Assembly: GCF_011682045.1 (NCBI RefSeq)
Contig: NZ_VVIW01000004.1
Span: forward strand, 248,001-312,000
Origin: Massilia aquatica
GTDB taxonomy: Bacteria; Pseudomonadota; Gammaproteobacteria; Burkholderiales; Burkholderiaceae_D
Length of the DNA: 64,000 nt
Direction: 5' to 3'
The position numbers were made by a program, and so were the translations under genes. This document shows positions 33,606 through 59,004 of the stretch, piece after piece. The notes under the pieces are model-generated. The model saw only the letters and a list, made by a program, of their open reading frames with translations. It had not been told where the DNA came from and made no database searches. Each line of letters starts with the position of its first letter. Within the stretch, counting starts at the first letter, position 1.

Positions 33606-33687
33606 ACTGCCTTTCTGGCCTGCGGCGGCGCGGGTTGCGCTGCCTGCCTGCAAGATGTGGATAAATTGACAAAATGCAAGTCCGCAC

Positions 33688-33730
33688 TGTCCGGCGCCTG
33701 TCCATACGCATTGTCCGGACAGCGCGGACA
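33688..33730. promoter_or_regulatory. TGTCC/GGACA activator-site cluster (UAS1)
   Basis: TGTCC half-sites at 33688, 33699 and 33712 and GGACA half-sites at 33717 and 33726 lie close together; 33712-33721 is the perfect palindrome TGTCCGGACA. The cluster ends 47 bases before the -24 element of the sigma-54 promoter. A matching cluster occurs at 58948-59004. The position fits binding of an NtrC-type activator; the one encoded downstream (38437-39765) is the natural candidate. Confidence 0.65.
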
Positions 33731-33776
33731 GGCGTTCACCGGTATTAAACCTCTTATGAATCAAAGACTTAATCCA

Positions 33777-33792
33777 TGGCATGCTTCCTGCA
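33777..33792 (+). promoter_or_regulatory. Sigma-54 promoter of the ABC exporter/two-component operon
   Basis: TGGCATGCTTCCTGCA has GG (33778-33779) and GC (33790-33791) exactly ten bases apart. Transcription would begin near 33802, about 24 bases before the adaptor start. Confidence 0.7.
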
Positions 33793-33825
33793 TTGGTGTT
33801 GTCATTTACTGTTCAGACAAGATCC

Positions 33826-35094
33826 ATGATCCGAGATACCTCTTCCCAGGACGCCACCATCAGCGCGTCGCCGGCGCACAAGGCCAGGCGCCGCATCCTC
33901 GCCGCCGCACTGGTGCTGGGCGCGCTGGGCGGCGCGGCGCTGCTGCTGTCGGCCTGGCGCAGCAGCGAGCATGCGGTCAGCGCGGCGCGCCTGCGCGTGG
34001 CCGAGGTCACGCGCGGCACCCTGGTGCGCGACGCCTCGGTCAACGGCCGCGTGGTGGCCGCCGTCAGTCCCACCCTGTACGCCACGGCGCCGGCCACGGT
34101 CACGCTCAAGGTGGCCGCCGGCGACACTGTCAAGAAAGGCCAGGTCCTGGCCCTGCTCGAATCGCCCGATCTGTCGGACGCGCTCAAACGCGAGCAATCG
34201 AGCTACCAGCAGTTAGAGGCGGAAGTGGCGCGCCAGCGCATCCTGGCCAAAAAGCAGAAGCTGCTGGCCCAGCGCGAAGCCGACACCGCCGAAATCGACC
34301 GCCTGTCGGCCCAGCGCACCCTGGAGCGCTACGACAGCGTGGTCCAGGAAGGCATCATCGCCAAGATCGACTACCAGAAAGCCAAGGACGCGCTCAACTC
34401 GGCCGGCATCCGCGCGCGCCACGCCACGCAGGCGGCCGCGCTGGAAGGCGACGACGTCGGCCTGGCGCTGCAAACCAAGCTGGCCGAACTCGATCGCCAG
34501 CGCCTCTCGATGGCCAACGCCCAGCGCCGCGTTGATGAGCTGTCGGTGCGCGCGCCGGTCGATGGCTTCATCGGTACCTTGTCGGTGCAAAACCGCAGCG
34601 TGGTGGCGGCCAATGCGGCCCTCATGACCCTGGTCGACCTGTCGCGCCTCGAAGTCGAACTCGAAGTCCCGGAAACCTATGTCGACGACATGGGCCTGGG
34701 CATGAGCGCCGAGATCTCGCTCGGCAACGCCACCGCCACTGGCAAGCTGTCGGCCCTCTCGCCCGAAGTGGTCAAGAACCAGGTGCTGGCGCGGGTGCGC
34801 TTCGACGGCGCCCAGCCCAAGGGCCTGCGCCAGAGCCAGCGCGTCAGCGCGCGCCTGCTGATCGAAGAAAAGCGCGACGTCATCCTGCTGCCGCGCGGCC
34901 CCTTCGTCGAGAGCGAAGGCGGGCGCTTCGCCTACGTCGTGCAAGGCGGCGAGGCCGTGCGCACCCCGATCACCCTGGGCGCGACCAGCGTGTCGTCGGT
35001 CGAAATCGTCAGCGGCCTGAAACCGGGCGACAAGGTCGTCATCGCCGGCACCGACACCTTCGCCAACGCGGCCCGCGTCTCCATCACGAATTGA
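33826..35094 (+). CDS. Periplasmic adaptor (MacA/HlyD type)
   Basis: A 422-residue membrane-fusion protein. One N-terminal span (ILAAALVLGALGGAALLLSAW) is followed by a lipoyl domain (TVKKGQVLALLESPDL), a coiled coil (about 105-200), a second lipoyl half (APVDGFIGTLSVQNRSVV) and a beta-barrel. The start at 33826 was chosen because the frame's upstream part (from 33781) overlaps the sigma-54 promoter. With the ABC genes that follow it forms a MacAB-like tripartite exporter; the substrate is unknown. Confidence 0.85.
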   Translation: MIRDTSSQDATISASPAHKARRRILAAALVLGALGGAALLLSAWRSSEHAVSAARLRVAEVTRGTLVRDASVNGRVVAAVSPTLYATAPATVTLKVAAGDTVKKGQVLALLESPDLSDALKREQSSYQQLEAEVARQRILAKKQKLLAQREADTAEIDRLSAQRTLERYDSVVQEGIIAKIDYQKAKDALNSAGIRARHATQAAALEGDDVGLALQTKLAELDRQRLSMANAQRRVDELSVRAPVDGFIGTLSVQNRSVVAANAALMTLVDLSRLEVELEVPETYVDDMGLGMSAEISLGNATATGKLSALSPEVVKNQVLARVRFDGAQPKGLRQSQRVSARLLIEEKRDVILLPRGPFVESEGGRFAYVVQGGEAVRTPITLGATSVSSVEIVSGLKPGDKVVIAGTDTFANAARVSITN

Positions 35095-35115
35095 ACTTCA
35101 ACCAAAGGAAATCCC

Positions 35116-35832
35116 ATGCTGCGCATGACCAACCTGAGCAAGGTGTACCGCACCCACATGATCGAAACCCACGCCCTGCGCGGCTTCGGCATCCACGTCG
35201 CCAGGGGCGAATTCGTTACCGTCACCGGTCCTTCCGGCTCGGGCAAGACCAGCTTCCTGAACATCGCCGGCCTGCTCGAAGAATTCACCGATGGCGAGTA
35301 TGTGCTCGATGGCGTCAACGTCAAGGGCATGGACGACAACGCCCGCTCGCGCCTGCGCAATGAAAAACTGGGCTTCATTTTCCAGGGTTTCAACCTGATT
35401 CCCGACCTGTCCCTGTTCGACAATGTGGACGTGCCGCTGCGCTACCGGGGTTTTAACGCCGCCGAACGCAAGGAGCGCATCGAAGACGCGCTTTCCAAGG
35501 TCGGACTGGCATCGCGCATGAAGCATTATCCGGCCGAACTGTCGGGCGGCCAGCAGCAGCGCGTGGCGATCGCGCGCGCGCTGGCCGGCTCGCCCAAGCT
35601 GCTGCTGGCCGATGAACCGACCGGCAACCTCGATACGCAGATGGCGCGCGGGGTGATGGAACTGCTGGAAGAAATCAACGCCCAGGGAACCACCATCCTG
35701 ATGGTCACCCACGACCCCGAACTGGCGGTGCGCGCGCAGCGCAATGTGCACATCATCGACGGCCAGGTATCGGACCTGGTGCGCGCGCCGTCCACCCTGG
35801 CCGGCGCCAAAGCGTCCGGCCAGGCCGCATAA
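35116..35832 (+). CDS. ABC transporter ATPase (MacB/LolD type)
   Basis: A 238-residue ATPase. Walker A is GPSGSGKTS, the signature LSGGQQQRVAIARALAG, Walker B LLLADEPTGNLD, and the H-loop MVTHDPE. It is most similar to the LolD/MacB/FtsE group, which drives mechanotransmission rather than transport through the membrane domains. It lies 21 bases after the adaptor gene and nine before the first permease. Confidence 0.92.
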   Translation: MLRMTNLSKVYRTHMIETHALRGFGIHVARGEFVTVTGPSGSGKTSFLNIAGLLEEFTDGEYVLDGVNVKGMDDNARSRLRNEKLGFIFQGFNLIPDLSLFDNVDVPLRYRGFNAAERKERIEDALSKVGLASRMKHYPAELSGGQQQRVAIARALAGSPKLLLADEPTGNLDTQMARGVMELLEEINAQGTTILMVTHDPELAVRAQRNVHIIDGQVSDLVRAPSTLAGAKASGQAA

Positions 35833-35841
35833 GGAGCATCC

Positions 35842-37155
35842 ATGTTTTCGTACTATCTTCTGCTGGGCGTTCGCAGCCTGCGCCGCAATCCGGCCCTGAC
35901 CGCGCTGATGGTGCTCACGCTCGCCATCGGCGTGGCCGCCAGCGTCTCGACCCTGACCATCCTGCACGTCATGGCGGGCAATCCGATTCCGCAAAAAAGC
36001 GAGCGCCTGTTCGTGCCCAGGATCGACAATGGCCCGCTCGAAGGCTTCAATCCCGAGGACGAAGACCGCAGCGACCCGCAGGCCAGCTACACCGACGCCA
36101 CCAACTTCCTCAAGAGCGGCCAGGGCGAACGGCGCGCAGTGCTGTATGGCGTGTCGATGCCGCTCGAGACCGAGCGCCGCGACCTGGCGGTGATGTCGGT
36201 CAAGGGCATCGCCGTGACGCGCGACTTCTTCGCCATGATGGACGTGCCTTTCCTGCACGGCCAGGCCTGGACCGACGCCGACGAACGGGCCGCTGCCGAT
36301 GTGGTCATATTAAGCAACGCGCTGGCCGAGAAGCTGTTCGGCGCGGCCAACCCGGTCGGCAAGCGGATCCGCCTGAAAGACACGCAGTACCAGGTGGTGG
36401 GCGTGCTCAAACCCTGGCTGCCGGTACCCAAGTTCTATCGCCTGATCGGCAGCGGCGCCTTCGCCGACGAAGACGAGATCATGCTGCCCTTCGCCACCGC
36501 GATCCGGCACCGGACGGATCCGGAAGGCAGCGTCAGTTGCCTCGGCCGCGCCGAACCGGGATGGCAGGGCTTTCTCGATTCCGAATGCAACTGGATGCAA
36601 GTGTTCTTCGAGACCAAGAGCGCCGCCGGACGCGCCGAACTGCAGGATTACCTCGATAGCTACGCCGCCGAACAGCGCAAGCTGGGGCGCCTCAAGCGCA
36701 AGCAGCCGAACCGCCTGTACGACGTGATGCAGTGGCTCGAATACCGCAAGGTGGTGGCCAACGACAGCCGCCTGGCAGCCTGGCTGGCCTTCGGCTTCCT
36801 GCTGCTTTGCCTGGTCAACACCATCGGCCTGCTACTGGCCAAATTCTCGGTGCGCGCCTCCGAGGTCGGCATCCGCCGTGCGCTGGGCGCCTCGCGCAAG
36901 GAGATCTTTCGCCAGTTCCTGACCGAGACGGCCGTCATCGGCCTGGCCGGCGGCGTGCTCGGACTGGTGCTGGCCGGCGGCGCGCTGGCCCTGATCCGCA
37001 CGCAGTCGAAGGAACTCAACGCCATCGCCAACATGGACTGGCAGATGCTGGGCATGACCTTCCTGATGGCGCTCGGCGCCGCCATGCTGGCCGGCCTGCT
37101 GCCGACCTGGCGCGCGTGCCAGGTCACGCCCGCCATCCAACTTAAATCGCAGTGA
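35842..37155 (+). CDS. MacB-like ABC permease, first copy
   Basis: A 437-residue permease. One N-terminal span (ALTALMVLTLAIGVAASVSTL) precedes a large periplasmic domain (about 40-310) and three C-terminal spans with the FtsX core motif (VRASEVGIRRALGASRKEIFRQFLTE). This four-span FtsX/MacB topology fits the partner ATPase. A second permease follows, and the pair probably forms a heterodimer. Confidence 0.88.
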   Translation: MFSYYLLLGVRSLRRNPALTALMVLTLAIGVAASVSTLTILHVMAGNPIPQKSERLFVPRIDNGPLEGFNPEDEDRSDPQASYTDATNFLKSGQGERRAVLYGVSMPLETERRDLAVMSVKGIAVTRDFFAMMDVPFLHGQAWTDADERAAADVVILSNALAEKLFGAANPVGKRIRLKDTQYQVVGVLKPWLPVPKFYRLIGSGAFADEDEIMLPFATAIRHRTDPEGSVSCLGRAEPGWQGFLDSECNWMQVFFETKSAAGRAELQDYLDSYAAEQRKLGRLKRKQPNRLYDVMQWLEYRKVVANDSRLAAWLAFGFLLLCLVNTIGLLLAKFSVRASEVGIRRALGASRKEIFRQFLTETAVIGLAGGVLGLVLAGGALALIRTQSKELNAIANMDWQMLGMTFLMALGAAMLAGLLPTWRACQVTPAIQLKSQ

Positions 37156-37172
37156 TTTACGAAAGACCCGTC

Positions 37173-38411: not shown

Positions 38412-38436
38412 CGGTTCCAATGGTATGCTGTCGCCC

Positions 38437-39765: not shown

Positions 39766-39768
39766 CCG

Positions 39769-41097
39769 ATGCGGCCGTCCCTGCGTTTATCGCTGATCAC
39801 ACGCTGTTCGGCGCTGGTCGGCACCTTGCTGGTACTCGGCATCCTGATCGCGCTCGGGCTGGACCGCCTGCTGCCGGGGCGCCTGGTCCTGGTCGTGGCG
39901 CTCTCGCTGGCCTGCGTGGTGCCGCTCGCGGTGATCACCATGCGCGCCCAGATCCGCCCGATCCTGTCGCTGTTTCGCGCGCTCGAAGGCACCGTCACCA
40001 GTTACAAGGACGGCGACTTTTCCTTCAGCCTGCACTGGCCGCAGAACGACGAACTGGCCGACCTGGTAGCGGCCCACAACGCACTCGGCAACGTGCTGCG
40101 CGAACAGCGCCTGGCGCTGGTGCAGCGCGAACTGCTGCTCGATACCATGGTCCAGAACACGCCGGTGGCGATGCTGCTGGTCGACGACGCGGCGGGCAGC
40201 CCCGGCGCCATCGTCTACGCCAACCTGTCGGCGCGCCAGATGCTGGGCCAGGGCCGCAAGCTCGAAGGCCAGCGCCTGTCCGAGATCCTCGGCCAGGCCT
40301 CGCCGGCGCTGGTGGACGCGCTGGCGCGCGGCGGCGACGGCTTGTTTTCCGCCGGCGAAGGCGAGGAAGAAGAGGTCTACCACCTGGCGCGCCGCAGTTT
40401 CAGCCTCAATGGCCGCAAGCACGAACTGCTGCTGCTGCGCCAGCTGACCCACGAGCTGCGGCGCCAGGAAGTGCAGACCTGGAAAAAGGTCATCCGCGTC
40501 ATCAGCCACGAACTGAATAATTCTCTCGCTCCCCTCACCTCGCTGGCCCACTCGGGCGCGGAGCTGGTGCGGCGCGGCCAGACCGAGCGCCTGCCGCAGA
40601 TCCTGGAAACCATCGAAGAGCGCACGCGCCACCTGGAGAGCTTCATCCTCGGCTACGCGCGCTTCGCCAAGCTGCCCTCGCCGCGCATCGAACAATGCCA
40701 GTGGCCTGCGTTTGTCGAACGACTGGCGTCGCAGGTGGCGCTGACGGTGGCAGGCGCCTTGCCGCAGGAAAGCGCCCGCTTCGACCCGGCCCAGATGGAA
40801 CAGGCCTTGCTCAACCTGCTCAAGAATGCCCACGAATCGGGTTCGCCCGCTGGCGACGTGGCGCTGCAGGTGCGCCAGGCGCACGGCACCTTGCGCATTG
40901 AGGTGATGGACCGCGGCCAGGGCATGAACGACGCGGTACTGACCAATGCGCTGGTGCCGTTCTACTCCACCAAGCGCAGCGGCACCGGCCTGGGCCTGGC
41001 GCTGGCGCGCGAAATCGCCGAAGCGCATGGCGGGCGCATCACGCTCGGCAACCGCGATGGCGGCGGCCTGACGGTGACCATGATCCTGCCGGTGTAA
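39769..41097 (+). CDS. Sensor histidine kinase (NtrY/AtoS-like)
   Basis: A 442-residue kinase starting three bases after the regulator stop. Two N-terminal spans (about 13-32 and 38-57) are separated by a very short loop, so there is no large periplasmic sensor. A HAMP-like linker, a PAS-like region (about 125-225), a dimerisation box VISHELNNSLAPL with His247 and an ATPase with NLLKNAHESG and GTGLGLALAREIAEAHGG follow. It probably senses membrane state or transporter activity. Confidence 0.9.
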   Translation: MRPSLRLSLITRCSALVGTLLVLGILIALGLDRLLPGRLVLVVALSLACVVPLAVITMRAQIRPILSLFRALEGTVTSYKDGDFSFSLHWPQNDELADLVAAHNALGNVLREQRLALVQRELLLDTMVQNTPVAMLLVDDAAGSPGAIVYANLSARQMLGQGRKLEGQRLSEILGQASPALVDALARGGDGLFSAGEGEEEEVYHLARRSFSLNGRKHELLLLRQLTHELRRQEVQTWKKVIRVISHELNNSLAPLTSLAHSGAELVRRGQTERLPQILETIEERTRHLESFILGYARFAKLPSPRIEQCQWPAFVERLASQVALTVAGALPQESARFDPAQMEQALLNLLKNAHESGSPAGDVALQVRQAHGTLRIEVMDRGQGMNDAVLTNALVPFYSTKRSGTGLGLALAREIAEAHGGRITLGNRDGGGLTVTMILPV

Positions 41098-41148
41098 GCG
41101 GCGGCGGGCGGATGATAAAATCGCGCTTCCCCTTCTTCTGCGCGCGCG

Positions 41149-41922: not shown

Positions 41923-42200
41923 GCGCCCGGCGCCGTTCTACCGACGCAGGTTCTAAGCATATAGCGTGGGCGTATAAGTGATGCGCGCGCGCGGGGTACG
42001 TAGTCGAGATTACATCGTTTTTTAGGTCGAAGCACTACATTTTGCTGCGGTTTGCCACTATTGCACGCATTTACAACACTCTCACATGACTCGTTGCGCG
42101 TCGCAAAACTCGTCGGGTAGTATCGTTTTCACATTGGCTGGCCCCACGAGGGTGTGTCCAGTGAATTCCCTAAAAATGAAAACGAAAACGAGACATCTAC

Positions 42201-44678: not shown

Positions 44679-44700
44679 GCTGGTCCTCGTTGCATGAACA

Positions 44701-44730
44701 GGCCACGCCGGCGACGGCGTGGCCTTTTTT
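44701..44730 (+). terminator. Rho-independent terminator after the TonB receptor
   Basis: GGCCACGCCG-GCGA-CGGCGTGGCC followed by TTTTTT lies 22 bases after the receptor stop. The end touches the stop of the convergent DUF817 gene. Confidence 0.93.
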
Positions 44731-45607: not shown

Positions 45608-45685
45608 GCGGACGAAACTCCAGGATGAAAGGGATGGCCAGATTGGCAGCGGCATCTTAACCGAAGTTGCGACCCTGCCAAGCTG

Positions 45686-49167: not shown

Positions 49168-50134
49168 GGGCCAGTATCCGTTCCATGGCAAAGAGGCCAA
49201 GCAGCACGAGCGTGAGCAGATAGCGCAAGGCGCCGCTGGACTGCGCCGGCGTGGCCGTGGACATGGCGGCGATCACTTGCGGCGGCATCGTGTAGGGCAC
49301 CGGCGCGTAGTGCAGCCGCTGCCAGTTCTCGAACAGGCGGCGCGCCGCGTCCGGCCCGGCCGGCGGCCATGCACTGGCGGCCCATACGCGCCCACGCGCG
49401 CCGCCGGCGTAGCGGATGCCGTCGACCTGTGCCGCCTTCTCCAGTTCCGGGAACGAGGCCGTGTCGCCAGCCCACCAGAGCGGGGCGGAGAGGCCTGCGG
49501 GCGCCGCTTGCGGTACATCCCAGATCACCAGCTCCGCCTCGCCTTGCGGCGCCTCGTCGACCTTGTAGCGGCGTGGACCGTCGAGCGCGGCGAACATAGC
49601 GCGCCATTGCGCCGCGCGCTTGCTGACGATAACCACGCGTTGTTCCGTCTGCGCGAAAGCCGGCGCCTTGCTGCGCACCTCGATCCGGTGGCGCGAGCGT
49701 GGCGGCGTGGCGGGCATCGGCACGTTACCGAGTACCAGCAGGCGCGAATCGGCGCGCCATTCGCGGTCGTGGCGCGCCAGCCACGCAAAAGGATCTTCAG
49801 CGGGCACGGCGATCCAACTGGCGTCGTAAAAGCCGGCCTGCCTGATCTGGCGCTCGGCCCAGTCGCTGTCGGTACCGGCGGCAATGAGCACCGCGTCGCG
49901 CCGCCATGGCAGTACCAGGTCGGCCAGCCAGGCAAGAACGGCGATAATCAACAGGCAGCGCGCGAGCAGCAGCATGCGTTCGGTCCAGCGCCACACGCGC
50001 AGTTGCTGCGGATCGGTGCGCGGCAGGAAGCGGGCGGTGGCCAGCGGCTCCTGGTGGACACGCTGGCGCCGCTGGCGGTGCCACAGGACCGGCAACGCCA
50101 GCAGGGCCAGTCCCAGCCACCAAAACGTATTCAT
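49151..50134 (-). CDS. BatA-like membrane protein
   Basis: A 327-residue protein. The start MNTFWWLGLALLALPVLWH and following basic loop match the BatA N-terminal (aerotolerance regulator) domain. A second span (LLLARCLLIIAVLAWLADL) follows, then a periplasmic domain without the vWA MIDAS motif, and a C-terminal span. Its ATG overlaps the DUF58 stop by four bases. In related clusters such proteins work with MoxR and DUF58 as a membrane chaperone assembly. Confidence 0.7.
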   Translation of the reverse strand: MNTFWWLGLALLALPVLWHRQRRQRVHQEPLATARFLPRTDPQQLRVWRWTERMLLLARCLLIIAVLAWLADLVLPWRRDAVLIAAGTDSDWAERQIRQAGFYDASWIAVPAEDPFAWLARHDREWRADSRLLVLGNVPMPATPPRSRHRIEVRSKAPAFAQTEQRVVIVSKRAAQWRAMFAALDGPRRYKVDEAPQGEAELVIWDVPQAAPAGLSAPLWWAGDTASFPELEKAAQVDGIRYAGGARGRVWAASAWPPAGPDAARRLFENWQRLHYAPVPYTMPPQVIAAMSTATPAQSSGALRYLLTLVLLGLFAMERILAHASRR

Positions 50135-51018
50135 GCGCGTGCGCCCCGGCGCAACCAGGTGCGCAGCACGGCAGGCAGCGGCTCTTCGATGCAGGCGGCC
50201 AGCACCGCAATATCGTTGTGACGGCATTGCGCCAGCATGCGCTCGAGGTGTTCGTCGCGGTTCTTGCGATAGACCCCAACCGTGTCGGATGCGAAGCGGA
50301 ACACGCCGTCGGCGTTTTCGGGATCGCGCCAGATGCTGTCTAGCTCAAAACTGGCGTCGCACTCGGCGCGCGTTTGCAGGCACAGAAGGCGCACGTCGTG
50401 GCGCATCCGGCGCAGGCGCAGCAGGGCTTCGGCCTGGCTGGAGGGCCAGTCGAGAAAATCGCTGGCGGCGAACACCAGGCTGGGTGCGCGCACGAACGGC
50501 ATGCTGGCGCGCAGGGTTTCGCCATCGGGCAGGGTGCCACCGGCTTCAATGCGCTGCAATTGCGCCAGCACGCGCTGCATCTGGCGCGGTCCGCGCGCAG
50601 CGGGCGTGAACTGCACGCGCTCGCCGCTGCAGATGACCAGGCCGAAGGCGTCGCCCTGGCGCTGCGCGATGGCGGCGATGCAGGCTAACACGGTGCGCGC
50701 GTACCAGAGTTTGTCCAGGCCCGACACGCCGCTGCGGCTCGGCTCCGCCATCGATGCGGTGGCGTCCAACCAGAGCCAGACCGCCACGTGGCTGTCACGC
50801 TCCGCTTCGCGCACGTAGTAACGGTCGGCGCGCGCCAGCAGCTTCCAGTCGATGCGGCGCCATTCGTCGCCGGGCGCATAGGCGCGGTATTCGGAAAATT
50901 CGACGCCGGCGCCGCGCTCGCGGCCCGCATGAATGCCGTGACCGAGCCCCGCCAGTACATGGCGGATGATCAGGTTCAGGTCATTGGTGTGCGCGAGCAG
51001 CGCGGACGTCGACAGCAT
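50131..51018 (-). CDS. DUF58 domain protein
   Basis: A 295-residue DUF58 protein, recognised by FSEYRAYAPGDEWRRIDWKLLARADRYYVREAERD. A vWA-like part follows (VWLWLDATASM), with the metal motif partly changed. DUF58 proteins are the usual partners of MoxR ATPases. ATG 51018 starts seven bases after the MoxR stop. Confidence 0.88.
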   Translation of the reverse strand: MLSTSALLAHTNDLNLIIRHVLAGLGHGIHAGRERGAGVEFSEYRAYAPGDEWRRIDWKLLARADRYYVREAERDSHVAVWLWLDATASMAEPSRSGVSGLDKLWYARTVLACIAAIAQRQGDAFGLVICSGERVQFTPAARGPRQMQRVLAQLQRIEAGGTLPDGETLRASMPFVRAPSLVFAASDFLDWPSSQAEALLRLRRMRHDVRLLCLQTRAECDASFELDSIWRDPENADGVFRFASDTVGVYRKNRDEHLERMLAQCRHNDIAVLAACIEEPLPAVLRTWLRRGARA

Positions 51019-51025
51019 GCGATGA

Positions 51026-52024
<999 letters not shown>

Positions 52025-52026
52025 TG

Positions 52027-52647
52027 TCACGCTCCCAAAGCATACTGAATGATATTGACCGCAAAGCGGGTATTGTCGACCACCAGCCAGCGCTTGTTGC
52101 GGAAGTCGTAGTCCCACTCGCAGCCGTAGTCCTTGTTCGAATACAGTACCCGCACGCGCCCGTTGATCTCGATCGCCTTGAGGTACTCGTGCACCAGGTC
52201 GTCGCCCCAGCCATTGAGCTCATTGCCGGTGTTGGGCGGGCCGTCGAACTGGAAGAAGCTCGAATACACCGGATGGCTGTTGGGGATTTTTTTAAGCGCC
52301 CTGGGGCCGAAAATGCGCGCCAGTTCGGCCTCGAAGGATTTGGCGAACAGGCCGTCGATATCGTGGTTGCAGTCGTCGACGAACACAAAGCCGCCGCCGC
52401 GCACATAGCGCTCGAAGTTCTTGCGCTCGGCCGGCGTGAACTGCACCAGCTTGTGCCCGGCCAGGTAGCAGAAGGGCGACTCCAGCATCTTGGCGTCCGC
52501 CAGCGCAATCACCCGCTCCACCGGATCGACGCGCAGCGTGGTGTACTCCACCAGCGAATTGAGCACGTTGCTGGGCATGCGGATATCCACGTCCCAGTCG
52601 CCCGACTCGTACATCAGGCGCGTGAAGTAGAAATCGTAGTTGCGCAT
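52027..52647 (-). CDS. DUF4159 domain protein
   Basis: A 206-residue protein of the DUF4159 family: the start NYDFYFTRLMYESGDWDVD, the core YVRGGGFVFVDDCNHDIDG and GRVRVLYSNKDYGCEWDYD are typical. The fold is glutamine-amidotransferase-like without a clear catalytic triad. No signal peptide is present, whereas other DUF4159 proteins are often exported. It lies two bases before the MoxR start. Confidence 0.85.
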   Translation of the reverse strand: MRNYDFYFTRLMYESGDWDVDIRMPSNVLNSLVEYTTLRVDPVERVIALADAKMLESPFCYLAGHKLVQFTPAERKNFERYVRGGGFVFVDDCNHDIDGLFAKSFEAELARIFGPRALKKIPNSHPVYSSFFQFDGPPNTGNELNGWGDDLVHEYLKAIEINGRVRVLYSNKDYGCEWDYDFRNKRWLVVDNTRFAVNIIQYALGA

Positions 52648-52661
52648 CGCCCGGCCCCGCC

Positions 52662-53999
52662 TTACACCGCGTCCGACAGCGACGTAAAGTTGAAGTCGCG
52701 GATTTTCATCGGCGGGATCATCATCTGGAAGTTCATGCCGTCGCCGCCAAGGATCTGCGGCTTGCCCAGTTCATCGAGATTATTGAGCATCGAGACCGGG
52801 CTTTCGTTAAAGCGGAAGTTCTTGACCGGATGCTTGATCTTGCCGTTTTCGACGTAGAAGGTGCCGTCGCGCGTCAGGCCCGTGAGCAGCAGCGACTGCG
52901 GATCGACGTCGCGGATGTACCAGGTGCGGGTGACCACGATGCCCTTCTTGGTCGAGGCGATCAATTCGTCGAGCGACTTGGATCCGCCCGACATGATCAT
53001 GTTGCCGTGGCGGCCGCGCGCCTTCATCTTTTGCTTGTTGGCCCAGAACAGCGAGTAGTCGAGCGAGACGATCTTGCCGTTCTTGATGATGTCGGTGCGT
53101 TCGCGCGGCAGCATCGATTCGGTGTCCCACGGACGCACCGGCACATCCTTGTCCCACGGGTCGGCCCATACGTTGACCTGTTCGTCGAACAGCTTTTCGC
53201 CCAAGCGATTGCCGCCGCCTTTTTTCGACAGGAAGCTGCGGCCCTCGTCGGCGCGGCGCGCGTCGAACGCGCCGAACATGCGGCCCACCAGGTCCGAGGT
53301 GGCGGCCGGTTCCAGGATCACGGTGTAGCGGCCCGGTTCCAGCGCCTTGGCGTCCACCGACCGCAATGCCTTTTCGATGGCCACGCTGGATGCTTCGCGC
53401 GCGTCAAACCGGCGCACGTCGTTGGCCGAGCGGGTCACCCAGCCGGAACCGCGGCCGTCTTCGGTGCGCGCGGTGCAGGTGAAGCTGACGTTGGTAAATT
53501 CATGGTGGCCGAACACGCCGTTGGAGTTGGCGATAGTCTCGAAACCGGTGTTATCGACAAAGAAGCCGGCTGTGACCAGCTTGTTCTTGCGCCCCGCCAG
53601 AATGCTGTGCGATGCCACTTCGGCGCGAAACTCCGGGTCGATGGCGGCCGTCTCGCGCGCAAACGCATTCGACGCCTTGTATTCCTGCTTGCCGATGGCT
53701 GCCATGAATTCCGGATTCTCGGGTGCGAGGCGCGCCACGTCTTCGGCGCGGCGCACGGCTTTTTCGAGCGACTTGTCATCGAACTCATTGATCGAGGCGG
53801 TGCCCTGGCGCTTGCCGAAGGCGACGCTCACGGTCATCTGCATGTTTTCGTTCAGGCCCGCCGTGGACACGCTGTTCTGGGCGTAGCGGATATTGCCGGT
53901 GCGGGTGCCGCTGATCGCCACGCGGCATTCGTCCGCCCTGGAAAACCCGAGCACGCGCTCGCAGATGCGTTTTGCTTCTTCCTGGTTCAACTGTTTCAT
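52662..53999 (-). CDS. TldE/PmbA-like protein, second copy
   Basis: A 445-residue member of the TldD/PmbA family. It lacks the zinc-binding HExxxH and so corresponds to the non-catalytic TldE (PmbA) subunit. Conserved features include TRTWYIRDVDPQSLLLTGLTRDG and the C-terminus FNFTSLSDAV. No signal peptide is present, although its partner has a Tat signal. It has the same length as the copy at 55763-57100, and most blocks match residue for residue, so the two pairs arose by tandem duplication. Confidence 0.87.
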   Translation of the reverse strand: MKQLNQEEAKRICERVLGFSRADECRVAISGTRTGNIRYAQNSVSTAGLNENMQMTVSVAFGKRQGTASINEFDDKSLEKAVRRAEDVARLAPENPEFMAAIGKQEYKASNAFARETAAIDPEFRAEVASHSILAGRKNKLVTAGFFVDNTGFETIANSNGVFGHHEFTNVSFTCTARTEDGRGSGWVTRSANDVRRFDAREASSVAIEKALRSVDAKALEPGRYTVILEPAATSDLVGRMFGAFDARRADEGRSFLSKKGGGNRLGEKLFDEQVNVWADPWDKDVPVRPWDTESMLPRERTDIIKNGKIVSLDYSLFWANKQKMKARGRHGNMIMSGGSKSLDELIASTKKGIVVTRTWYIRDVDPQSLLLTGLTRDGTFYVENGKIKHPVKNFRFNESPVSMLNNLDELGKPQILGGDGMNFQMMIPPMKIRDFNFTSLSDAV

Positions 54000-54020
54000 T
54001 GCGTGGTCTCCTTAGCCGGC

Positions 54021-55658
54021 TTAGCCGATTTTACGGGCGGTGTTGATGACGTTGATGCCGTTAAAACGCGTGGTGCTTGACCCGTGCGAGACCGCGCTGA
54101 CCTGGCTGGGCTGCCCTTTGCCATCAAAAAACGAGCCGCCCATGCGCCAGTCGCGCACGTCGCAGATGGCGCTGCACGCGTTCCAGAACTCCTGGGTGTT
54201 GGACTGGTAGGCCACGTCCTCCAGGGGACCGGCGATCTTGCCGTTCTTGATCTCGAAGTAGAGCTGGCCGCCGAACTGGAAGTTGTAGCGCTGCTGGTCG
54301 ATCGAGTACGAACCGCGCCCGAGGATGTAGATACCCTTCTTGACGTCCTTGATCATCTCGTCGGGAGTGAGGCGCTCCTTGCCGGCTTGAAGCGACACGT
54401 TCGGCATGCGCTGGAACTGCACGCTGTTCCAGCTGTCGGCGTACGAGCAGCCGTGCGATTCCTTTTCGCCGATGATGTGGGCCTGGTCGCGCGTGGCCTG
54501 GTAGTTCACCAGCACGCCGTCGCGGATGATGTCCCAGCGCTTGGCGGGCACGCCTTCATCGTCGTAGCCGACCGCGCCGAGCGAACCCGGTTCGTTTTTA
54601 TCGGCGATGAAGTTGACCCGGTCGGCGCCGAACTTGAATTTCTTGGTCTGCCATTTATCGAGCGTGGCAAAGCTGGTGCCGGCGTAATTGGCTTCGTAGC
54701 CCAGTACGCGATCGAGTTCGGTCGGGTGGCCGACCGACTCGTGGATGGTCAGGAACAGATGTTCGGGCGCGAGAACCAGGTCGTACTTGCCCGGTTCGAC
54801 CGTCTTGGCGGAGAGTTTTTCGCGTGCCTGGCGGCCGGCCGCGCGCGCATCTTCCACGATGTCGTAGGACTTGGTGTAGAGCGTGGCGACACCGCCGGCG
54901 GCCTTGATTTTATCGGCAGCTCGCGCGTCGAAGTATTCGTAGCCCATGCCGGCCGGCGAGGCCAGGCCGTCGCGCGTGCGGAACCTGTTGCTGGCCTTGT
55001 CGACGGCGGTGGCGGTGAGTGGCGCCCACAGGCGGTGGATGTCCTGGTCGATGTAGGAGCCGTCGGTGGAGGCAAAGTACTTTTGCTGGTTGACCTGGAA
55101 CAGGGTCGAGGTCATGAAGCTGGCGCCGGCGTCCAGGCCCGCCTTGTTGGCGGCGATGAGCATCTCGGCCTTGTCCTTGATGGGGACCGTGCGCCAGTCT
55201 TTGGTGAATGGCGTGGCCCAGGCCACTTCGCCGACGCCCTTGACCGGCGCCATTTGCAGCGGCTCGCTTTGCAGCTTGCTGTTGGCGCGGGCGATGGCAA
55301 CCGCCTGGCGCGCGGCGGCGGCGATGCTGTCCGGCGACATGTCGTTGGTGGAGGCGAAGCCGTAGGCGCCGTTGGCGATCACGCGCACGCCCACGCCGGA
55401 CGATTCGGTGTTGACGATGTTCTCCACGCTCAGGTCGCGCGTGGTGATGAACTGGTTCAGGTAGCGCCCGATGCGCACGTCGCAGTAGGTGGCGCCGGCC
55501 TTGGTGGCGGCGTTCATGGCGGCGTCGGCCAGCGACTTCTTGAATGCGATGGCGACCGGGTTCATTAATTCTTCGGCCGCGATGGCGTTGCCGAAGACCG
55601 GGACCAGGATGGCGCCCGCGGCGCCGCTGCTGATCTTGAGGAAGGTACGTCGTTCCAC
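54021..55658 (-). CDS. TldD-like metallopeptidase with Tat signal, second copy
   Basis: A 545-residue TldD-family zinc peptidase. The N-terminus ERRTFLKISSGAAGAILVPV is a Tat signal (RRTFLK plus hydrophobic stretch, AIAAEE cleavage region). The zinc site is HESVGH (His306, Glu307, His311), and a conserved cysteine lies in WNACSAICD. With TldE, such enzymes cleave unfolded or ribosomally made peptides in E. coli (microcin B17, CcdA), but there they are cytoplasmic. Export is the unusual feature here. It lies 21 bases before the TldE partner. Confidence 0.88.
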   Translation of the reverse strand: MERRTFLKISSGAAGAILVPVFGNAIAAEELMNPVAIAFKKSLADAAMNAATKAGATYCDVRIGRYLNQFITTRDLSVENIVNTESSGVGVRVIANGAYGFASTNDMSPDSIAAAARQAVAIARANSKLQSEPLQMAPVKGVGEVAWATPFTKDWRTVPIKDKAEMLIAANKAGLDAGASFMTSTLFQVNQQKYFASTDGSYIDQDIHRLWAPLTATAVDKASNRFRTRDGLASPAGMGYEYFDARAADKIKAAGGVATLYTKSYDIVEDARAAGRQAREKLSAKTVEPGKYDLVLAPEHLFLTIHESVGHPTELDRVLGYEANYAGTSFATLDKWQTKKFKFGADRVNFIADKNEPGSLGAVGYDDEGVPAKRWDIIRDGVLVNYQATRDQAHIIGEKESHGCSYADSWNSVQFQRMPNVSLQAGKERLTPDEMIKDVKKGIYILGRGSYSIDQQRYNFQFGGQLYFEIKNGKIAGPLEDVAYQSNTQEFWNACSAICDVRDWRMGGSFFDGKGQPSQVSAVSHGSSTTRFNGINVINTARKIG

Positions 55659-55683
55659 TATTTACTCCTGCTTGCAAGGCTCC

Positions 55684-55723
55684 GTCGTCCCCGCGCCGAG
55701 GGCCGCCTTGGCGCGGGAACGAC
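55684..55723. repeat. Hairpin between the two TldD-TldE pairs
   Basis: GTCGTCCCCGCGCC (55684-55697) pairs with GGCGCGGGAACGAC (55710-55723) with one mismatch, around a 12-base loop, in the 104-base spacer between the pairs. It resembles extragenic palindromes with CCCGCG cores. It may reduce read-through from the first pair to the second or be a relic of the duplication. Confidence 0.7.
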
Positions 55724-55762
55724 GAGTTATCGATTAGATCAGCTTCGTTGCCTGGTCTGGGC

Positions 55763-57100
55763 TTACACCGCGTCCGACAAAGACGTAAAGTTAAAATCCC
55801 TGACCTTCATCGGCGGAATCAGCATCGAATACGGCACCTCGTCGCCCGCGATCACCTGCGGCTTGCCGATCGCCTCGATATTGTTCAACATGGTCACCGG
55901 GCTTTCGTTGAAGCGGAAATTCTTGATCGGATGCTTGATCTTGCCGTTCTCGATGTAAAAGGTACCGTCGCGCGTGAGGCCGGTCAGCAGTACCGACTGC
56001 GGGTCCACCTCGCGGATGTACCAGGTGCGCGTGACCAGCACGCCGCGCTTGGTACCGGCGATCAGTTCCGCCGTCGATTTGTCGGTCCCACCCATGATCA
56101 TATTCCCCGGCGCGCCAATGGCGCGCACGCCTTTCTTCTTGGCCCAGAACAGCGAATAGTCGAGCGCCGAGACCTTGCCATCCTTGATCAGGTTCATGCG
56201 CTCGCGCGCCAGCATGGTGTTCGCATCCCACGGCAGCACCGGCACATCCTTGTCCCACGGGTCGGACCAGATATTGACCTGCGCGTCGAACAGCTTGTCG
56301 CCCAGGCGCGTGCCGCCGCCCTTCTTCGACAAAAAGCTGCGGCCCTCGTCGGCCTGGCGCGCGTCGAAACCACCAAGCATGAAGCCGATCAGGTCCGAGG
56401 TGGCGGCCGGCTCCAGGATCACCGTGTAGCGGCCCGGCTCGAGCGCCTTGGCGTCGACCGAACGCAGCGCCTTTTCGATGGCCACGTCGGACGCTTCGCG
56501 CGCATCGAAGCGCGCCACATCGGTGGCCAAGCGCTGGACCCAGCCCGAGCCGCGTCCGTCTTCGGTACGCACGGTGCAGGTGAAGTCGACGTTGGTTTCT
56601 TCCTGGTGGCCGAACACGCCGTTCGAATTGGCAATGGTCTGGAACGCATGGCTGTCGGTGAAAAAGCCCGCGCATACCAGCTTGTTCTTGCGGCTCGCCT
56701 CAATGCTGTAGGCCGCCGTCTGTGCGCGAAACTCCGGATCGATGGCGGCGGTGGCGCGGTTGAAGGTCTGCGACGCCTTGAACGCCTGCTTGCCCACGGC
56801 CGGCATGAACTCCGGGTTCTCCGGCGCCAGGCGCGCCAGGTCTTCGGCGCGGCGCACGACTTTTTCGAGCGACTTGTCGTCGAATTCGTTGATGGTGGCG
56901 GTGCCCTGGCGTTTGCCGAAGGCGACCTGCACCACCAGGTCGGCGTTGTCGACCAGGCCGGCGGTGGAAACGTTATTGCGCGCGTAGCGGATGTTCCCGG
57001 TGCGCCCGCCGGAAACGCGCACCGTGCATTCGTCGGCTTTTGTCAGCGCCATCACGCGGTCGGCAATGCGCTTGCTTTCTTCTTGAGTCAGAATCTTCAT
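55763..57100 (-). CDS. TldE/PmbA-like protein, first copy
   Basis: A 445-residue TldE-like subunit, starting MKILTQEESKRIADRVMALTKADE. It lacks HExxxH and a signal peptide, as in the second copy. The segments ANSNGVFGHQEETNVDFTC, SDPWDKDVPVLPWDA and the C-terminus FNFTSLSDAV are shared with it. It follows the first TldD gene by 15 bases. Confidence 0.87.
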   Translation of the reverse strand: MKILTQEESKRIADRVMALTKADECTVRVSGGRTGNIRYARNNVSTAGLVDNADLVVQVAFGKRQGTATINEFDDKSLEKVVRRAEDLARLAPENPEFMPAVGKQAFKASQTFNRATAAIDPEFRAQTAAYSIEASRKNKLVCAGFFTDSHAFQTIANSNGVFGHQEETNVDFTCTVRTEDGRGSGWVQRLATDVARFDAREASDVAIEKALRSVDAKALEPGRYTVILEPAATSDLIGFMLGGFDARQADEGRSFLSKKGGGTRLGDKLFDAQVNIWSDPWDKDVPVLPWDANTMLARERMNLIKDGKVSALDYSLFWAKKKGVRAIGAPGNMIMGGTDKSTAELIAGTKRGVLVTRTWYIREVDPQSVLLTGLTRDGTFYIENGKIKHPIKNFRFNESPVTMLNNIEAIGKPQVIAGDEVPYSMLIPPMKVRDFNFTSLSDAV

Positions 57101-57115
57101 GTGCGGTCCCCTGGC

Positions 57116-58753
57116 TTAGCCGATCTTGCGTGCGGTGTTGATGACGTTGATGCCATTGAAGCGGGCGGTGCTCGACCCGTGCGACACCGTACTGACCTGG
57201 CTTGGCTGGCCTTTGCCGTCGAAGAAGGAGCCGCCCATGCGCCAGTCCCTCTCGTCGCAGATGGCGCTGCAGGCGTTCCAGAATTCCTGGGTGTTCGACT
57301 GGTAGGCCACGTCTTCGAGCGGCGCACCGATCTTGCCGTTGTTGATTTCGTAGAACAGTTGGCCGCCGAACTGGAAGTTGTAGCGCTGCTGGTCGATCGA
57401 GAACGAACCCGCGCCGACGATGTAGATGCCCTTCTTGACATCCTTGACCATCTGGTCCGGCGTGAGCCTGGTTTTGCCCGCTTCCAGCGAAATGTTAGGC
57501 ATGCGCTGGAACTGCACGCTGCTCCAGCTGTCGGCGTACGAGCAGCCGTGCGACTCCTTCTCGCCGATGATGTGGGCCTGGTCGCGCGTGGCCTGGTAGT
57601 TGACCAGGATGCCGTCCTTGATGATGTCCCAGCGCTTGCCCGGCACGCCTTCGTCGTCGTAGCCGACCGCGCCCAGCGAGCCTGGCGTGGTCTTGTCGGC
57701 CACGATATTCACGCGCTCGGAGCCGTACTTGAATTTCTTGGTTTCCCACTTGTCGAGCGTGGCGAAGCTGGTGCCGGCGTAATTGGCCTCGTAGCCCAGC
57801 ACGCGATCGAGCTCGGTCGGATGGCCCACCGATTCGTGGATGGTCAGGTACAGGTGTTCGGGCGAGAGCACCAGGTCGTATTTGCCCGGCGCGACCGACT
57901 TGGCGGTCAGCTTTTCCTTGGCCTGGCGTCCGCAGGCGCGCGCGTCTTCAATCAGGTCGTAGGAATTCTTGTACAGGGTGCAGACGCCGCCGGCGGCCTT
58001 GATCTTGTCTTCCGCGCGCGCGTCCAGGTATTCGTAGCCCATGCCGACCGGCGTGGACAAGCCCTGGCGCGAGCGGAACTTGTTGGTGGCCTTGTCGACG
58101 GCGGTGGCGAACACCGGCATCCACATGCGGTGCACGTCCTGGTCGATGTAGGAACCGTCGGTCGAGGCGAAGTACTTTTGCTGGTTCACCTGGAACATCA
58201 GCGACTGCATGAAGCTCGCGCCGCCGTCCATGCCGGCCTTGTTGGCGGCGATCAGCAGCTCGGCTTTTTCCTTGATGGGGACCGTGCGCCAGTCCTTCTT
58301 GATCGGGGTGGCCCAGGCCACTTCGCCCACGCCCTTGACGCTCGCCAGGCGCACCGGTTCCGATTGCAGCCTGGCGTTGGCCTTGGCGATGGCGACCGCC
58401 TGGCGCGCGGCGCCGGCCACCGCATCGGGCGACATGTCGGAGGTGGCGGCAAAGCCGTAGGCACCGTTGCAGATGACCCGCACGCCGACGCCGGCCGATT
58501 CGGTGTTGGTCACGCTTTCGACGTTCAGGTCGCGCGTGGTGATGAACTGATTCAGGTAGCGGCCGATGCGCACGTCGCAGTAGGTCGCACCGGCGCCGGT
58601 GGCGGCGCTGAGGGCCGTGTCGGCCAGGGTCTTCTTGAACTTTGCTGCAAGGGGATTGAGTAATTCTTCAGCGGCGATGGCGTTGCCGAACACCGGCACC
58701 AGCATCGTGCCCAGTGCGAGCCCGCTGATATTGAGAAAAGCACGTCGTTCCAT
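57116..58753 (-). CDS. TldD-like metallopeptidase with Tat signal, first copy
   Basis: A 545-residue TldD-family zinc peptidase, the first gene of the ten-gene operon. ERRAFLNISGLALGTMLVPVFG is a Tat-type signal with a weaker motif (RRAFLN). The zinc site HESVGH and surrounding GHPTELDRVLGYEANYAG match the second copy exactly. ATG 58753 was chosen because it aligns with the second copy; a GTG/ATG slightly upstream (58768) would add five residues. A sigma-54 promoter lies about 145 bases upstream. Confidence 0.88.
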   Translation of the reverse strand: MERRAFLNISGLALGTMLVPVFGNAIAAEELLNPLAAKFKKTLADTALSAATGAGATYCDVRIGRYLNQFITTRDLNVESVTNTESAGVGVRVICNGAYGFAATSDMSPDAVAGAARQAVAIAKANARLQSEPVRLASVKGVGEVAWATPIKKDWRTVPIKEKAELLIAANKAGMDGGASFMQSLMFQVNQQKYFASTDGSYIDQDVHRMWMPVFATAVDKATNKFRSRQGLSTPVGMGYEYLDARAEDKIKAAGGVCTLYKNSYDLIEDARACGRQAKEKLTAKSVAPGKYDLVLSPEHLYLTIHESVGHPTELDRVLGYEANYAGTSFATLDKWETKKFKYGSERVNIVADKTTPGSLGAVGYDDEGVPGKRWDIIKDGILVNYQATRDQAHIIGEKESHGCSYADSWSSVQFQRMPNISLEAGKTRLTPDQMVKDVKKGIYIVGAGSFSIDQQRYNFQFGGQLFYEINNGKIGAPLEDVAYQSNTQEFWNACSAICDERDWRMGGSFFDGKGQPSQVSTVSHGSSTARFNGINVINTARKIG

Positions 58754-58898
58754 AGTATCTCCTGACAATCACCACCAAGGTATGCGCCCCGCAAATGCCG
58801 CGAGCGCTCTTTGTTTTTGTACTTACCGGGACCATGCCGATCGCTGGCCTGAACCAAAAAATCAACAAGAACCTTACCAGCAAAATGGCGAAAAGAAT

Positions 58899-58915
58899 AC
58901 GCAAAACTTATGCCA
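58899..58915 (-). promoter_or_regulatory. Sigma-54 promoter of the TldD-TldE/MoxR operon
   Basis: On the minus strand TGGCATAAGTTTTGC has GG and GC exactly ten bases apart and a full TTGC box, the best sigma-54 match in the window. Transcription would start near 58889, about 135 bases before the first TldD gene. An activator cluster lies just upstream. Confidence 0.75.
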
Positions 58916-58947
58916 TTTCCTAAGTGCTTGATTTGGAAATCCTGGAG

Positions 58948-59004
58948 TGTCCGGGACAGGCTGTCCGCAGTGTCCGGAGCAGTGTCCGCCCGCTGTATCG
59001 GACA
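58948..59004. promoter_or_regulatory. TGTCC/GGACA activator-site cluster (UAS2)
   Basis: TGTCC half-sites start at 58948, 58962, 58971 and 58983; GGACA half-sites start at 58954 and 59000. TGTCC-G-GGACA at 58948-58958 is a perfect palindrome. The cluster lies 34-90 bases upstream of the sigma-54 promoter on the minus strand. The half-site is the same as in UAS1 (33688-33730). It also precedes the divergent gene at 59130. Confidence 0.68.

What the first reader, a model, noticed from the sequence alone, without database searches (positions are those of the whole stretch)
33688..59004. Shared sigma-54 regulon: ABC exporter operon and TldD/TldE-MoxR operon carry the same activator sites
Two separate operons each have a GG-N10-GC sigma-54 promoter (33777-33792; 58899-58915, minus) preceded at 35-90 bases by a cluster of TGTCC/GGACA half-sites (33688-33730; 58948-59004), each with a perfect palindrome. 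The first operon encodes an NtrC-type activator and its kinase. Seen: promoters, half-sites, gene content. Inferred: the same activator binds both, linking a MacAB-like exporter to two exported TldD peptidases and a MoxR/DUF58/BatA assembly. I know of no described system with this link.
Basis: partly seen in the sequence, partly recalled or inferred. Interest (0 to 1): 0.85.

Follow-up and report, generated by a model that had tools for sequence, protein, structure and literature searches.

The report
Exporter and protease operons share switch
In bacteria related to Massilia, one regulator appears to switch on both a membrane exporter and a set of exported peptide-cutting enzymes through the same repeated DNA tag, which points to one uncharacterised cell-surface response.

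Summary
Both promoters carry a sigma-54 box behind an array of GGACA/TGTCC half-sites. Of 72 usable TldD-operon upstream regions, 56 have array and box, 15 neither, 1 the box alone. Half-sites repeat about every 11 bp. The array precedes the exporter operon in 24 of 27 family members and in 18 of 19 usable members from other families of the class, so it most likely belongs to the NtrC-type regulator encoded there. The link to the TldD operon was seen only within Oxalobacteraceae, was lost several times, and is absent in the three TldD-bearing family genomes that lack the regulator. Outside the family the two operons still co-occur, apart. New details: TldD starts with a Tat motif and TldE does not; the third metal ligand is Asp where E. 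coli TldD has Cys; hydropathy suggests a kinase with two membrane helices and a very short loop. I read this as an envelope/peptide-stress regulon; that role is inferred. There are no binding or expression data.

The parts
33688..33730 (+). Array A: five TGTCC/GGACA half-sites, proposed activator sites of the exporter operon
   Evidence: at least three half-sites in 24 of 27 family and 18 of 19 other-family operon A upstream regions
33759..33771 (+). IHF-like element (A/T)ATCAA-N4-TT(A/G), 18 bp upstream of the T of the sigma-54 box
   Evidence: within 17-19 bp of the box in 17 of 27 family operon A promoters; in 32 of 29,700 random 45-bp windows. IHF consensus recalled, not from a call
33777..33791 (+). 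sigma-54 -24/-12 box TGGCATGCTTCCTGC of operon A
33826..35094 (+). MacA/HlyD-type periplasmic adaptor
   Evidence: Pfam PF16576/PF13437, TIGR01730 above cut-off
35116..35832 (+). ABC ATPase (LolD/MacB/DarD-like)
   Evidence: PF00005; NCBIfam best DarD, below cut-off
35842..37155 (+). MacB/FtsX-type permease 1
   Evidence: PF12704 and PF02687
37152..38411 (+). MacB/FtsX-type permease 2
   Evidence: PF02687 and PF12704
38404..39765 (+). NtrC-type response regulator, the proposed activator of both operons
   Evidence: PF00072, PF00158, PF02954; C-terminal HTH highly conserved in 17 aligned orthologues
39769..41097 (+). Histidine kinase, probably two membrane helices with almost no periplasmic loop
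   Evidence: PAS, HATPase above cut-off; HisKA just below; hydropathy
58948..59004 (-). Array B: six TGTCC/GGACA half-sites upstream of the TldD operon
58921..58933 (-). IHF-like element, 18 bp upstream of the sigma-54 box of operon B
   Evidence: 12 of 56 array-bearing promoters, 0 of 16 without array
58901..58915 (-). sigma-54 -24/-12 box TGGCATAAGTTTTGC of operon B
57116..58753 (-). TldD 1: Tat-type signal (MERRAFL), HESVGH, Asp in place of the third metal ligand Cys
55763..57100 (-). TldE 1 (PmbA-like), no signal-like start
54021..55658 (-). TldD 2, Tat-type signal
52662..53999 (-). TldE 2, no signal-like start
52027..52647 (-). DUF4159 protein
   Evidence: PF13709
51026..52030 (-). MoxR AAA+ ATPase (start codon approximate)
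   Evidence: PF07726; 57-65% identical in 10 of 11 loci outside the family
50131..51087 (-). DUF58 protein (start codon uncertain)
   Evidence: PF01882
49151..50134 (-). BatA-N-terminus membrane protein
   Evidence: PF07584 just above cut-off; not detected in the 11 loci outside the family
47212..49200 (-). DUF4175 membrane protein
   Evidence: PF13779
45686..47218 (-). Membrane protein of unknown family, last gene of the cassette
   Evidence: no Pfam or NCBIfam match; weak relatives (23-27%) at the same place in 6 of 11 loci outside the family

Best explanation
The two operons form one small sigma-54 regulon run by the NtrC-type regulator encoded in the exporter operon (38404-39765). The neighbouring kinase appears to have two membrane helices and almost no periplasmic loop. 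I infer that it senses a membrane or exporter-linked signal and phosphorylates the regulator. The regulator would bind helically phased GGACA half-site arrays about 30-90 bp upstream of the -24 box of both promoters, helped in this lineage by an IHF-type bend, and open them. This raises its own operon (exporter, regulator, kinase: positive feedback) and, in many Oxalobacteraceae, a conserved cassette of Tat-exported TldD proteases with TldE partners and a MoxR/DUF58/BatA-type membrane machine. SHOWN by sequence: arrays, boxes, spacing, conservation, near-joint loss, scarcity elsewhere, Tat motif, Cys-to-Asp change. INFERRED: binding, activation, kinase topology and signal, and the purpose, most likely removal and degradation of harmful or misfolded peptides at the cell envelope.
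For: Array and sigma-54 box present together or absent together at operon B in 71 of 72 loci. Successive GGACA copies lie 9-12 bp apart in 150 of 174 gaps under 40 bp, mode 11; elsewhere in the same loci 10 of 87. CGGAC and GGACA are the top two 5-mers for clustering upstream of TldD (53 and 51 of 75 regions). In 116 family genomes the array-plus-box pattern gave 27 distinct places in 22 of 29 regulator-bearing genomes, 26 of them at operon A or B (two of these placed by likeness or position only), and 5 in 4 of 87 genomes without the regulator, inside open frames with 2-3 half-sites. The array precedes operon A in 24 of 27 family and 18 of 19 other-family members, where the regulator is 47-72% identical. 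All 55 array-bearing genomes that could be searched (own plus 54 named) have the regulator; 0 of 3 genomes without it have the array. Phylum sample of 398: regulator 23, TldD cassette 13, both 10.
Against: No binding or expression data. 14 of the 16 array-less operon B loci lie in genomes that keep the regulator, so the link is not obligatory. Two genomes keep a good box without an array (D. phyllosphaerae; G056, outside the 72), against strict joint decay. None of 11 cassettes from outside the family has the array. 13 of 23 regulator-bearing genomes in the phylum sample lack the cassette. Within the family the two operons lie 17-28 kb apart on one contig in 15 of 17 genomes with both, so shared inheritance inflates co-occurrence, and no count is corrected for descent. 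The strict pattern misses many true promoters (2 of 13 genus genomes have no hit). In one array-bearing genome (Psd. buxea) the regulator match is partial with a stop inside. Other sigma-54 activators use similar half-sites (GlrR: TGTC-N10-GACA), so another activator at operon B is not excluded by sequence. The physiological role has no direct evidence.
Confidence: 0.8

Rival explanations
1. Two separate NtrC-type activators with similar half-sites serve the two operons; the resemblance of the arrays is convergence or shared descent, not a shared regulator.
For: The genome has at least 8 NtrC-type matches at E below 1e-60 (14 of 139 candidates scored), and GlrR uses TGTC/GACA half-sites.
Against: The strict pattern finds only these two promoters in the own genome. 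Array-bearing TldD promoters were seen only in genomes with this regulator (55 of 55 searched, own), and the array is absent in the 3 TldD-bearing family genomes without it.
Confidence: 0.11
2. The operons are only neighbours: the operon B array arose locally and has little regulatory effect.
For: The operons lie 17-28 kb apart in 15 of 17 family genomes with both, and several lineages have lost the operon B array.
Against: Phasing and the -24/-12 box are maintained together across 56 loci and are both gone in 15. Half-site arrangement differs between A and B, so B is not a simple copy. In G098 (Massilia sp. MS-15) the operons are on different contigs and both arrays persist, but it is a draft and the distance is unknown.
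Confidence: 0.07
3. Same regulator, different purpose: the system exports and matures a secreted peptide (TldD/E as leader protease, MacAB-like pump as exporter) rather than detoxifying peptides.
For: E. coli TldD/E removes the leader of microcin B17 (abstract and passages); the ATPase is nearest to the darobactin exporter DarD among NCBIfam models, though below its cut-off.
Against: The cassette lies apart from the exporter outside the family, and a Tat-exported TldD would act after export. No precursor-peptide gene was looked for, so this is weak.
Confidence: 0.25

Closest known systems
GlrK-GlrR (QseE-QseF) sigma-54 system of enterobacteria
   Same: Two-component NtrC-type activator, sigma-54 promoters, TGTC/GACA half-sites (TGTC-N10-GACA, table passage)
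   Different: Here the half-sites are TGTCC/GGACA, often in direct 11-bp phased arrays; targets are an exporter operon and a protease cassette, not small RNAs; the GlrR NCBIfam model is far below cut-off (271.5 of 763 bits)
PrsK-PrsR (XrtA/PEP-CTERM) system
   Same: Best NCBIfam hit of the regulator (TIGR02915); RpoN-dependent targets (passages)
   Different: Score 322.8 against cut-off 502.6; the kinase is not PrsK (75.5 against 300); gene neighbourhood is an exporter
TldD/TldE (PmbA) heterodimeric protease
   Same: TldD with HExxxH beside a TldE partner gene
   Different: Tat motif at the start, third metal ligand Asp instead of Cys454, duplicated, fixed in a MoxR/DUF58 cassette
MacAB tripartite exporter and DarBCD darobactin exporter
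   Same: MacA-type adaptor, MacB/FtsX permeases, LolD/DarD-like ATPase
   Different: ATPase and permeases are separate genes with two or more permeases; the MacA, MacB and Dar equivalog scores seen are below cut-off (permease 2 not scanned there)
Intramembrane-sensing kinases coupled to ABC transporters (BceS type; recalled)
   Same: Probably two helices with a very short loop, and an ABC exporter in the same operon
   Different: Kinase with PAS domain and an NtrC-type, sigma-54-dependent response regulator
Uncharacterised TldD-MoxR operon of Stenotrophomonas maltophilia
   Same: Two TldD, a MoxR ATPase and other proteins, called 'not-yet-characterized'; some of its genes downregulated in biofilm in all isolates (passage of PMC7688217)
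   Different: No regulator or exporter link is mentioned in the passage seen; I did not compare its sequence

Membership tests
sigma-54 / enhancer-binding-protein regulon | -24/-12 promoter (GG-N10-GC) before each operon | tested here: met
sigma-54 / enhancer-binding-protein regulon | Conserved activator sites upstream of the box at the orthologous operons | tested here: met
   Operon B 56 of 72; operon A 24 of 27 family and 18 of 19 other-family
sigma-54 / enhancer-binding-protein regulon | Activator with sigma-54 interaction domain and Fis-type HTH | tested here: met
   PF00158 and PF02954
sigma-54 / enhancer-binding-protein regulon | Transcription depends on RpoN and on the activator | not testable with these tools
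   needs mutants
PrsR (PEP-CTERM response regulator) | TIGR02915 score above cut-off | tested here: not met
   322.8 against 502.6 bits
GlrR | NF011695 score above cut-off | tested here: not met
   271.5 against 763 bits
TldD/TldE metalloprotease | PmbA_TldD domains and HExxxH in TldD with a TldE partner gene | tested here: met
TldD/TldE metalloprotease | Cys (E. coli Cys454) as third metal ligand | tested here: not met
   Asp in 6 of 6 cassette TldDs aligned (2 own, 4 from outside the family); Cys in E. coli TldD and in 5 of 6 generic relatives, the sixth being a wrong frame; Asp invariant in 15 aligned family copies
MacAB exporter (equivalog) | MacA (NF008606) and fused MacB (NF007826) scores above cut-off | tested here: not met
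   65.3 of 342 for the adaptor; 207.1 of 966 for the ATPase, 54.4 of 966 for permease 1
Intramembrane-sensing histidine kinase | Two membrane helices with a very short extracytoplasmic loop | tested here: inconclusive
   Hydropathy only, 33 rows: 12 give exactly two segments, 4-12 residues apart; 18 give overlapping or several segments in the same N-terminal stretch; 1 a single segment; 2 no complete kinase

The most novel reading that the evidence does not exclude
A transporter-coupled kinase without a sensor domain drives, through an autoregulated sigma-54 array switch, an exported peptide-clearing system. TldD, with Asp replacing the oxidisable Cys metal ligand, carries its signal-less TldE partner through Tat as a folded heterodimer, and a dedicated MoxR/DUF58/BatA membrane machine assembles or loads it. 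This would be an extracytoplasmic TldD/E protease system and a new envelope-stress pathway.
Probability: 0.3. Interest if true: 0.78.

Novelty: new variant of a known kind. Interest (0 to 1): 0.62.

Why it matters
E. coli TldD/TldE is a peptide protease without an export signal (recalled). Here a conserved but, as far as my searches show, unnamed proteobacterial cassette appears to export it, and a defined regulator, promoter architecture and exporter are tied to it, which gives a direct way to find its signal and substrate. By the strict pattern the regulon is small (essentially two promoters), so a single regulator deletion or activated allele would test the whole system. The near-joint gain and decay of array and promoter also make a clean case of regulatory rewiring.

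Tried and rejected
Paired half-sites alone (TGTCC-N0-12-GGACA) as a genome-wide finder: not enriched (44 against 45 control), dropped. Single GGACA plus box in the own genome: 4 hits against 4 in the reversed control; only the two with arrays were kept. PrsR/PEP-CTERM as the regulator's family: below cut-off. GlrR: below cut-off.

A third regulon member was looked for with the strict pattern in 13 genus genomes and 116 family genomes; none convincing. The remaining hits lie inside open frames, or are one near-identical coding-like sequence in two genomes that I read by eye as PutA-like. In one search, 11 of 13 genomes have a hit; 18 of 20 rows read like operon A or B promoters, for several of them judged by sequence likeness only. 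Promoters with other spacing or sites would be missed. Arrays at operon B outside the family: none found. IHF as a general feature of operon B: only 12 of 56, and only 2 of 19 other-family operon A promoters, so it is reported as lineage-limited. Strict joint decay of box and array: not quite, two box-only cases.

Rows dropped from the 72-locus count: L132 and L169 (contig end); L178, L183, L193 and L199 (match was the second TldD copy). Of 19 family genomes have the array, 6 have neither (G003, G113, G018, G040, G027, G079), G056 has the box without array, and G108 ended 76 bp upstream (a promoter like B was later seen on another contig). Not usable for operon A: G044, G069 and two of 21 other-family regions (macA not found there).

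Own errors: the first regular expression had the wrong spacing for box A. In one search minus-strand loci were not turned; redone. In one search the macA query was one base out of frame; redone. In one search the MoxR and BatA queries were out of frame; redone. In one search row L057 is a wrong frame.
Full report
Observation. Both claimed promoters are real. Operon A (33826 to 41097, plus strand) is preceded by five half-sites at 33688-33730 and a sigma-54 box at 33777-33791; operon B (58753 down to 45686, minus strand) by six half-sites at 58948-59004 and a box at 58915-58901. Operon A encodes a MacA-type adaptor, a separate ABC ATPase, two MacB/FtsX permeases, an NtrC-type response regulator and a kinase. 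Operon B encodes two TldD-TldE pairs, DUF4159, MoxR, DUF58, a BatA-like protein, DUF4175 and an unknown membrane protein.

Is it more than chance? Paired half-sites alone are not enriched in the genome (44 against 45 reversed-control matches). Two GGACA followed by a box are: in 13 genus genomes 11 have a hit; of 20 rows, 18 read like operon A or B promoters and 2 are one coding-like sequence; the reversed control gives none. In the own genome the looser single-half-site pattern gives 4 hits (control 4), of which only the two promoters carry arrays.

Conservation at operon B. A scan of named genomes kept 77 loci of Massilia, Duganella, Rugamonas, Pseudoduganella, Undibacterium and others, out of 210 relatives, of which it keeps the best 80. 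With the own locus that makes 78; after dropping six (two contig ends, four second TldD copies), 72 remain. 56 have at least three half-sites and a box, 15 neither, one the box only (Fisher p 1.4e-14, not corrected for descent). GGACA copies follow each other at 9-12 bp in 150 of 174 gaps under 40 bp, mode 11; elsewhere in the same loci in 10 of 87. In array-less loci such as M. brevitalea and M. solisilvae the -12 region is still recognisable while the -24 GG and the half-sites are gone (read by eye). Against strict joint decay, D. phyllosphaerae and G056 (not among the 72) keep a good box without an array. On a TldD tree of 74 rows the trait needs 6 changes, against a mean of 16.3 in shuffles, which fits one gain and several losses; several deep forks are unsupported.

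Whose sites are they? At least three half-sites precede operon A in 24 of 27 family members (misses: G045 and G067 with two, G107 with none) and in 18 of 19 usable members from other families of the class (miss: L251 with two; a box near the array in 17 of 19), whose regulator is 47-72% identical. The regulator's C-terminal HTH is highly conserved in 17 aligned orthologues. In 116 family genomes the strict pattern gave 34 rows, 32 distinct places: 27 in 22 of 29 genomes with the regulator (26 at operon A or B, of which the G108 one was placed by likeness at a contig edge and the G069 one by its position about 4 kb upstream of the regulator gene; 1 in coding sequence, G113, the only hit there), and 5 in 4 of 87 genomes without it, inside open frames of 138-544 codons with 2-3 half-sites. 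The reversed control gave 4. Of 76 named genomes searched for the regulator, 74 have an orthologue (66-97% identical; two matches, Psd. buxea and BJB404, are partial, the former with a stop inside); the two without (L148, L186) have no array at operon B. G079, rated 100% complete and without the regulator at E 1e-75, has a decayed box and two leftover half-sites. Against the link: 14 array-less loci lie in genomes that keep the regulator.

Beyond the family. At E up to 1e-100 the cassette TldD was found in 2 of 250 genomes of the order (both of the window's family) and 13 of 398 of the phylum. In the phylum draw of the same size and handles the regulator (E up to 1e-130) is in 23: both 10, TldD only 3, regulator only 13, neither 372. 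In the 8 other-family genomes with both, the operons are on different contigs (7) or 0.7 Mb apart (G667). In all 11 outside loci operon B has at most one half-site per 100 bp in the 500 bp upstream and no convincing box, while operon A in the 8 that have it keeps its array where readable (L250 not readable, L251 with two half-sites). So the association of the operons looks older than the direct transcriptional link. These counts are not corrected for descent.

Extra features. An element matching the IHF consensus (recalled) sits 17-19 bp before the box in 17 of 27 family operon A promoters, 2 of 19 other-family ones and 12 of 56 array-bearing operon B promoters, 0 of 16 array-less ones, and in 32 of 29,700 random 45-bp windows. 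All 170 TldD copies whose start was covered by the match begin with an RR-x-F/L motif; none of 158 TldE copies does. Aligned with E. coli TldD, the metal ligand Cys454 (role from PMC5810440, passages) is Asp in 6 of 6 cassette TldDs and Cys in 5 of 6 generic relatives, the sixth being a wrong frame. By hydropathy the kinase has two N-terminal helices close together: 12 of 33 rows give exactly two segments 4-12 residues apart, most others give overlapping segments. The cassette order is conserved: 64 of 77 named loci read TldD-TldE-TldD-TldE-DUF4159-MoxR-DUF58-BatA-DUF4175; the rest are cut or variant. Outside the family TldD, TldE, DUF4159, MoxR (57-65%), DUF58 and DUF4175 recur in 10 of 11 loci; BatA was not detected there, and the eleventh (L232) has its cassette on the strand opposite to its first TldD.

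Mechanism. The best reading is an autoregulated sigma-54 switch: kinase to NtrC-type regulator, arrays, exporter operon and, in many Oxalobacteraceae, the TldD cassette. Binding and activation are inferred. The signal is inferred from the likely kinase topology and its exporter neighbour. The role, clearing harmful or misfolded peptides at the envelope, is inferred from TldD/E degrading unfolded peptides and from MacAB-like exporters (general knowledge). I put about 0.88 on the shared regulator and about 0.4 on the envelope-peptide role. On re-reading I lowered the overall confidence from 0.82 to 0.8 because of the second box-only case and the uncertain kinase topology.

Literature. Searches for TldD with MoxR and DUF58 (0 papers), DUF4159 with MoxR (0), TldD with sigma54 (3, listing only), TldD/TldE/Tat signal (31, 20 listed), half-site and NtrC terms (246, 12 listed, none with the half-site words), an exporter-NtrC combination (0), TldD with MoxR (3, one opened) and intramembrane-sensing with sigma54 terms (4, listing only) showed no description of the link; the library lacks most subscription papers. 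PMC7688217 (passages) calls a Stenotrophomonas operon with two TldD and a MoxR ATPase not yet characterised, with some genes downregulated in biofilm. GlrR's TGTC-N10-GACA site is from a table passage of PMC4987338. PMC9850573 (passages) gives no PrsR site sequence in what I saw.

Verdict. The correction is that the operon B wiring is a lineage-specific addition to an older regulator-exporter unit. It is a new variant of a known kind: a sigma-54 regulon with an unusual, uncharacterised output.

Noticed in passing
window 57116-58753 and 54021-55658: Exported TldDs carry Asp where E. coli TldD has the metal ligand Cys454, possibly an adaptation to the oxidising periplasm.
   Followed up: partly
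window 52662-58753: TldE genes have no signal-like start although their TldD partners have Tat motifs, which suggests co-export of a folded pair or a split location.
   Followed up: partly
window 30076-31890: A phosphoethanolamine-transferase-like (sulfatase fold, EptA N-terminus) gene lies close to the exporter operon, separated by a MutS-domain gene (31986-33782, minus, start uncertain).
   Followed up: no
window 42201-44678: TonB-dependent receptor gene between the two operons.
   Followed up: no
window 60056-61609: Trypsin/PDZ-domain protease gene beyond the divergent neighbour of operon B.
   Followed up: no
L250 with L293 (one operon), and L282: Exporter operons in other families with many MacB-type permease matches in alternation.
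   Followed up: no
window 45686-47218: Membrane protein without Pfam or NCBIfam match that ends the TldD cassette; weak relatives at the same place in 6 of 11 loci outside the family.
   Followed up: partly
L083 (G056), upstream of the first TldD: Intact sigma-54 box but no half-site array; the promoter may be freshly decoupled or served by other sites.
   Followed up: no
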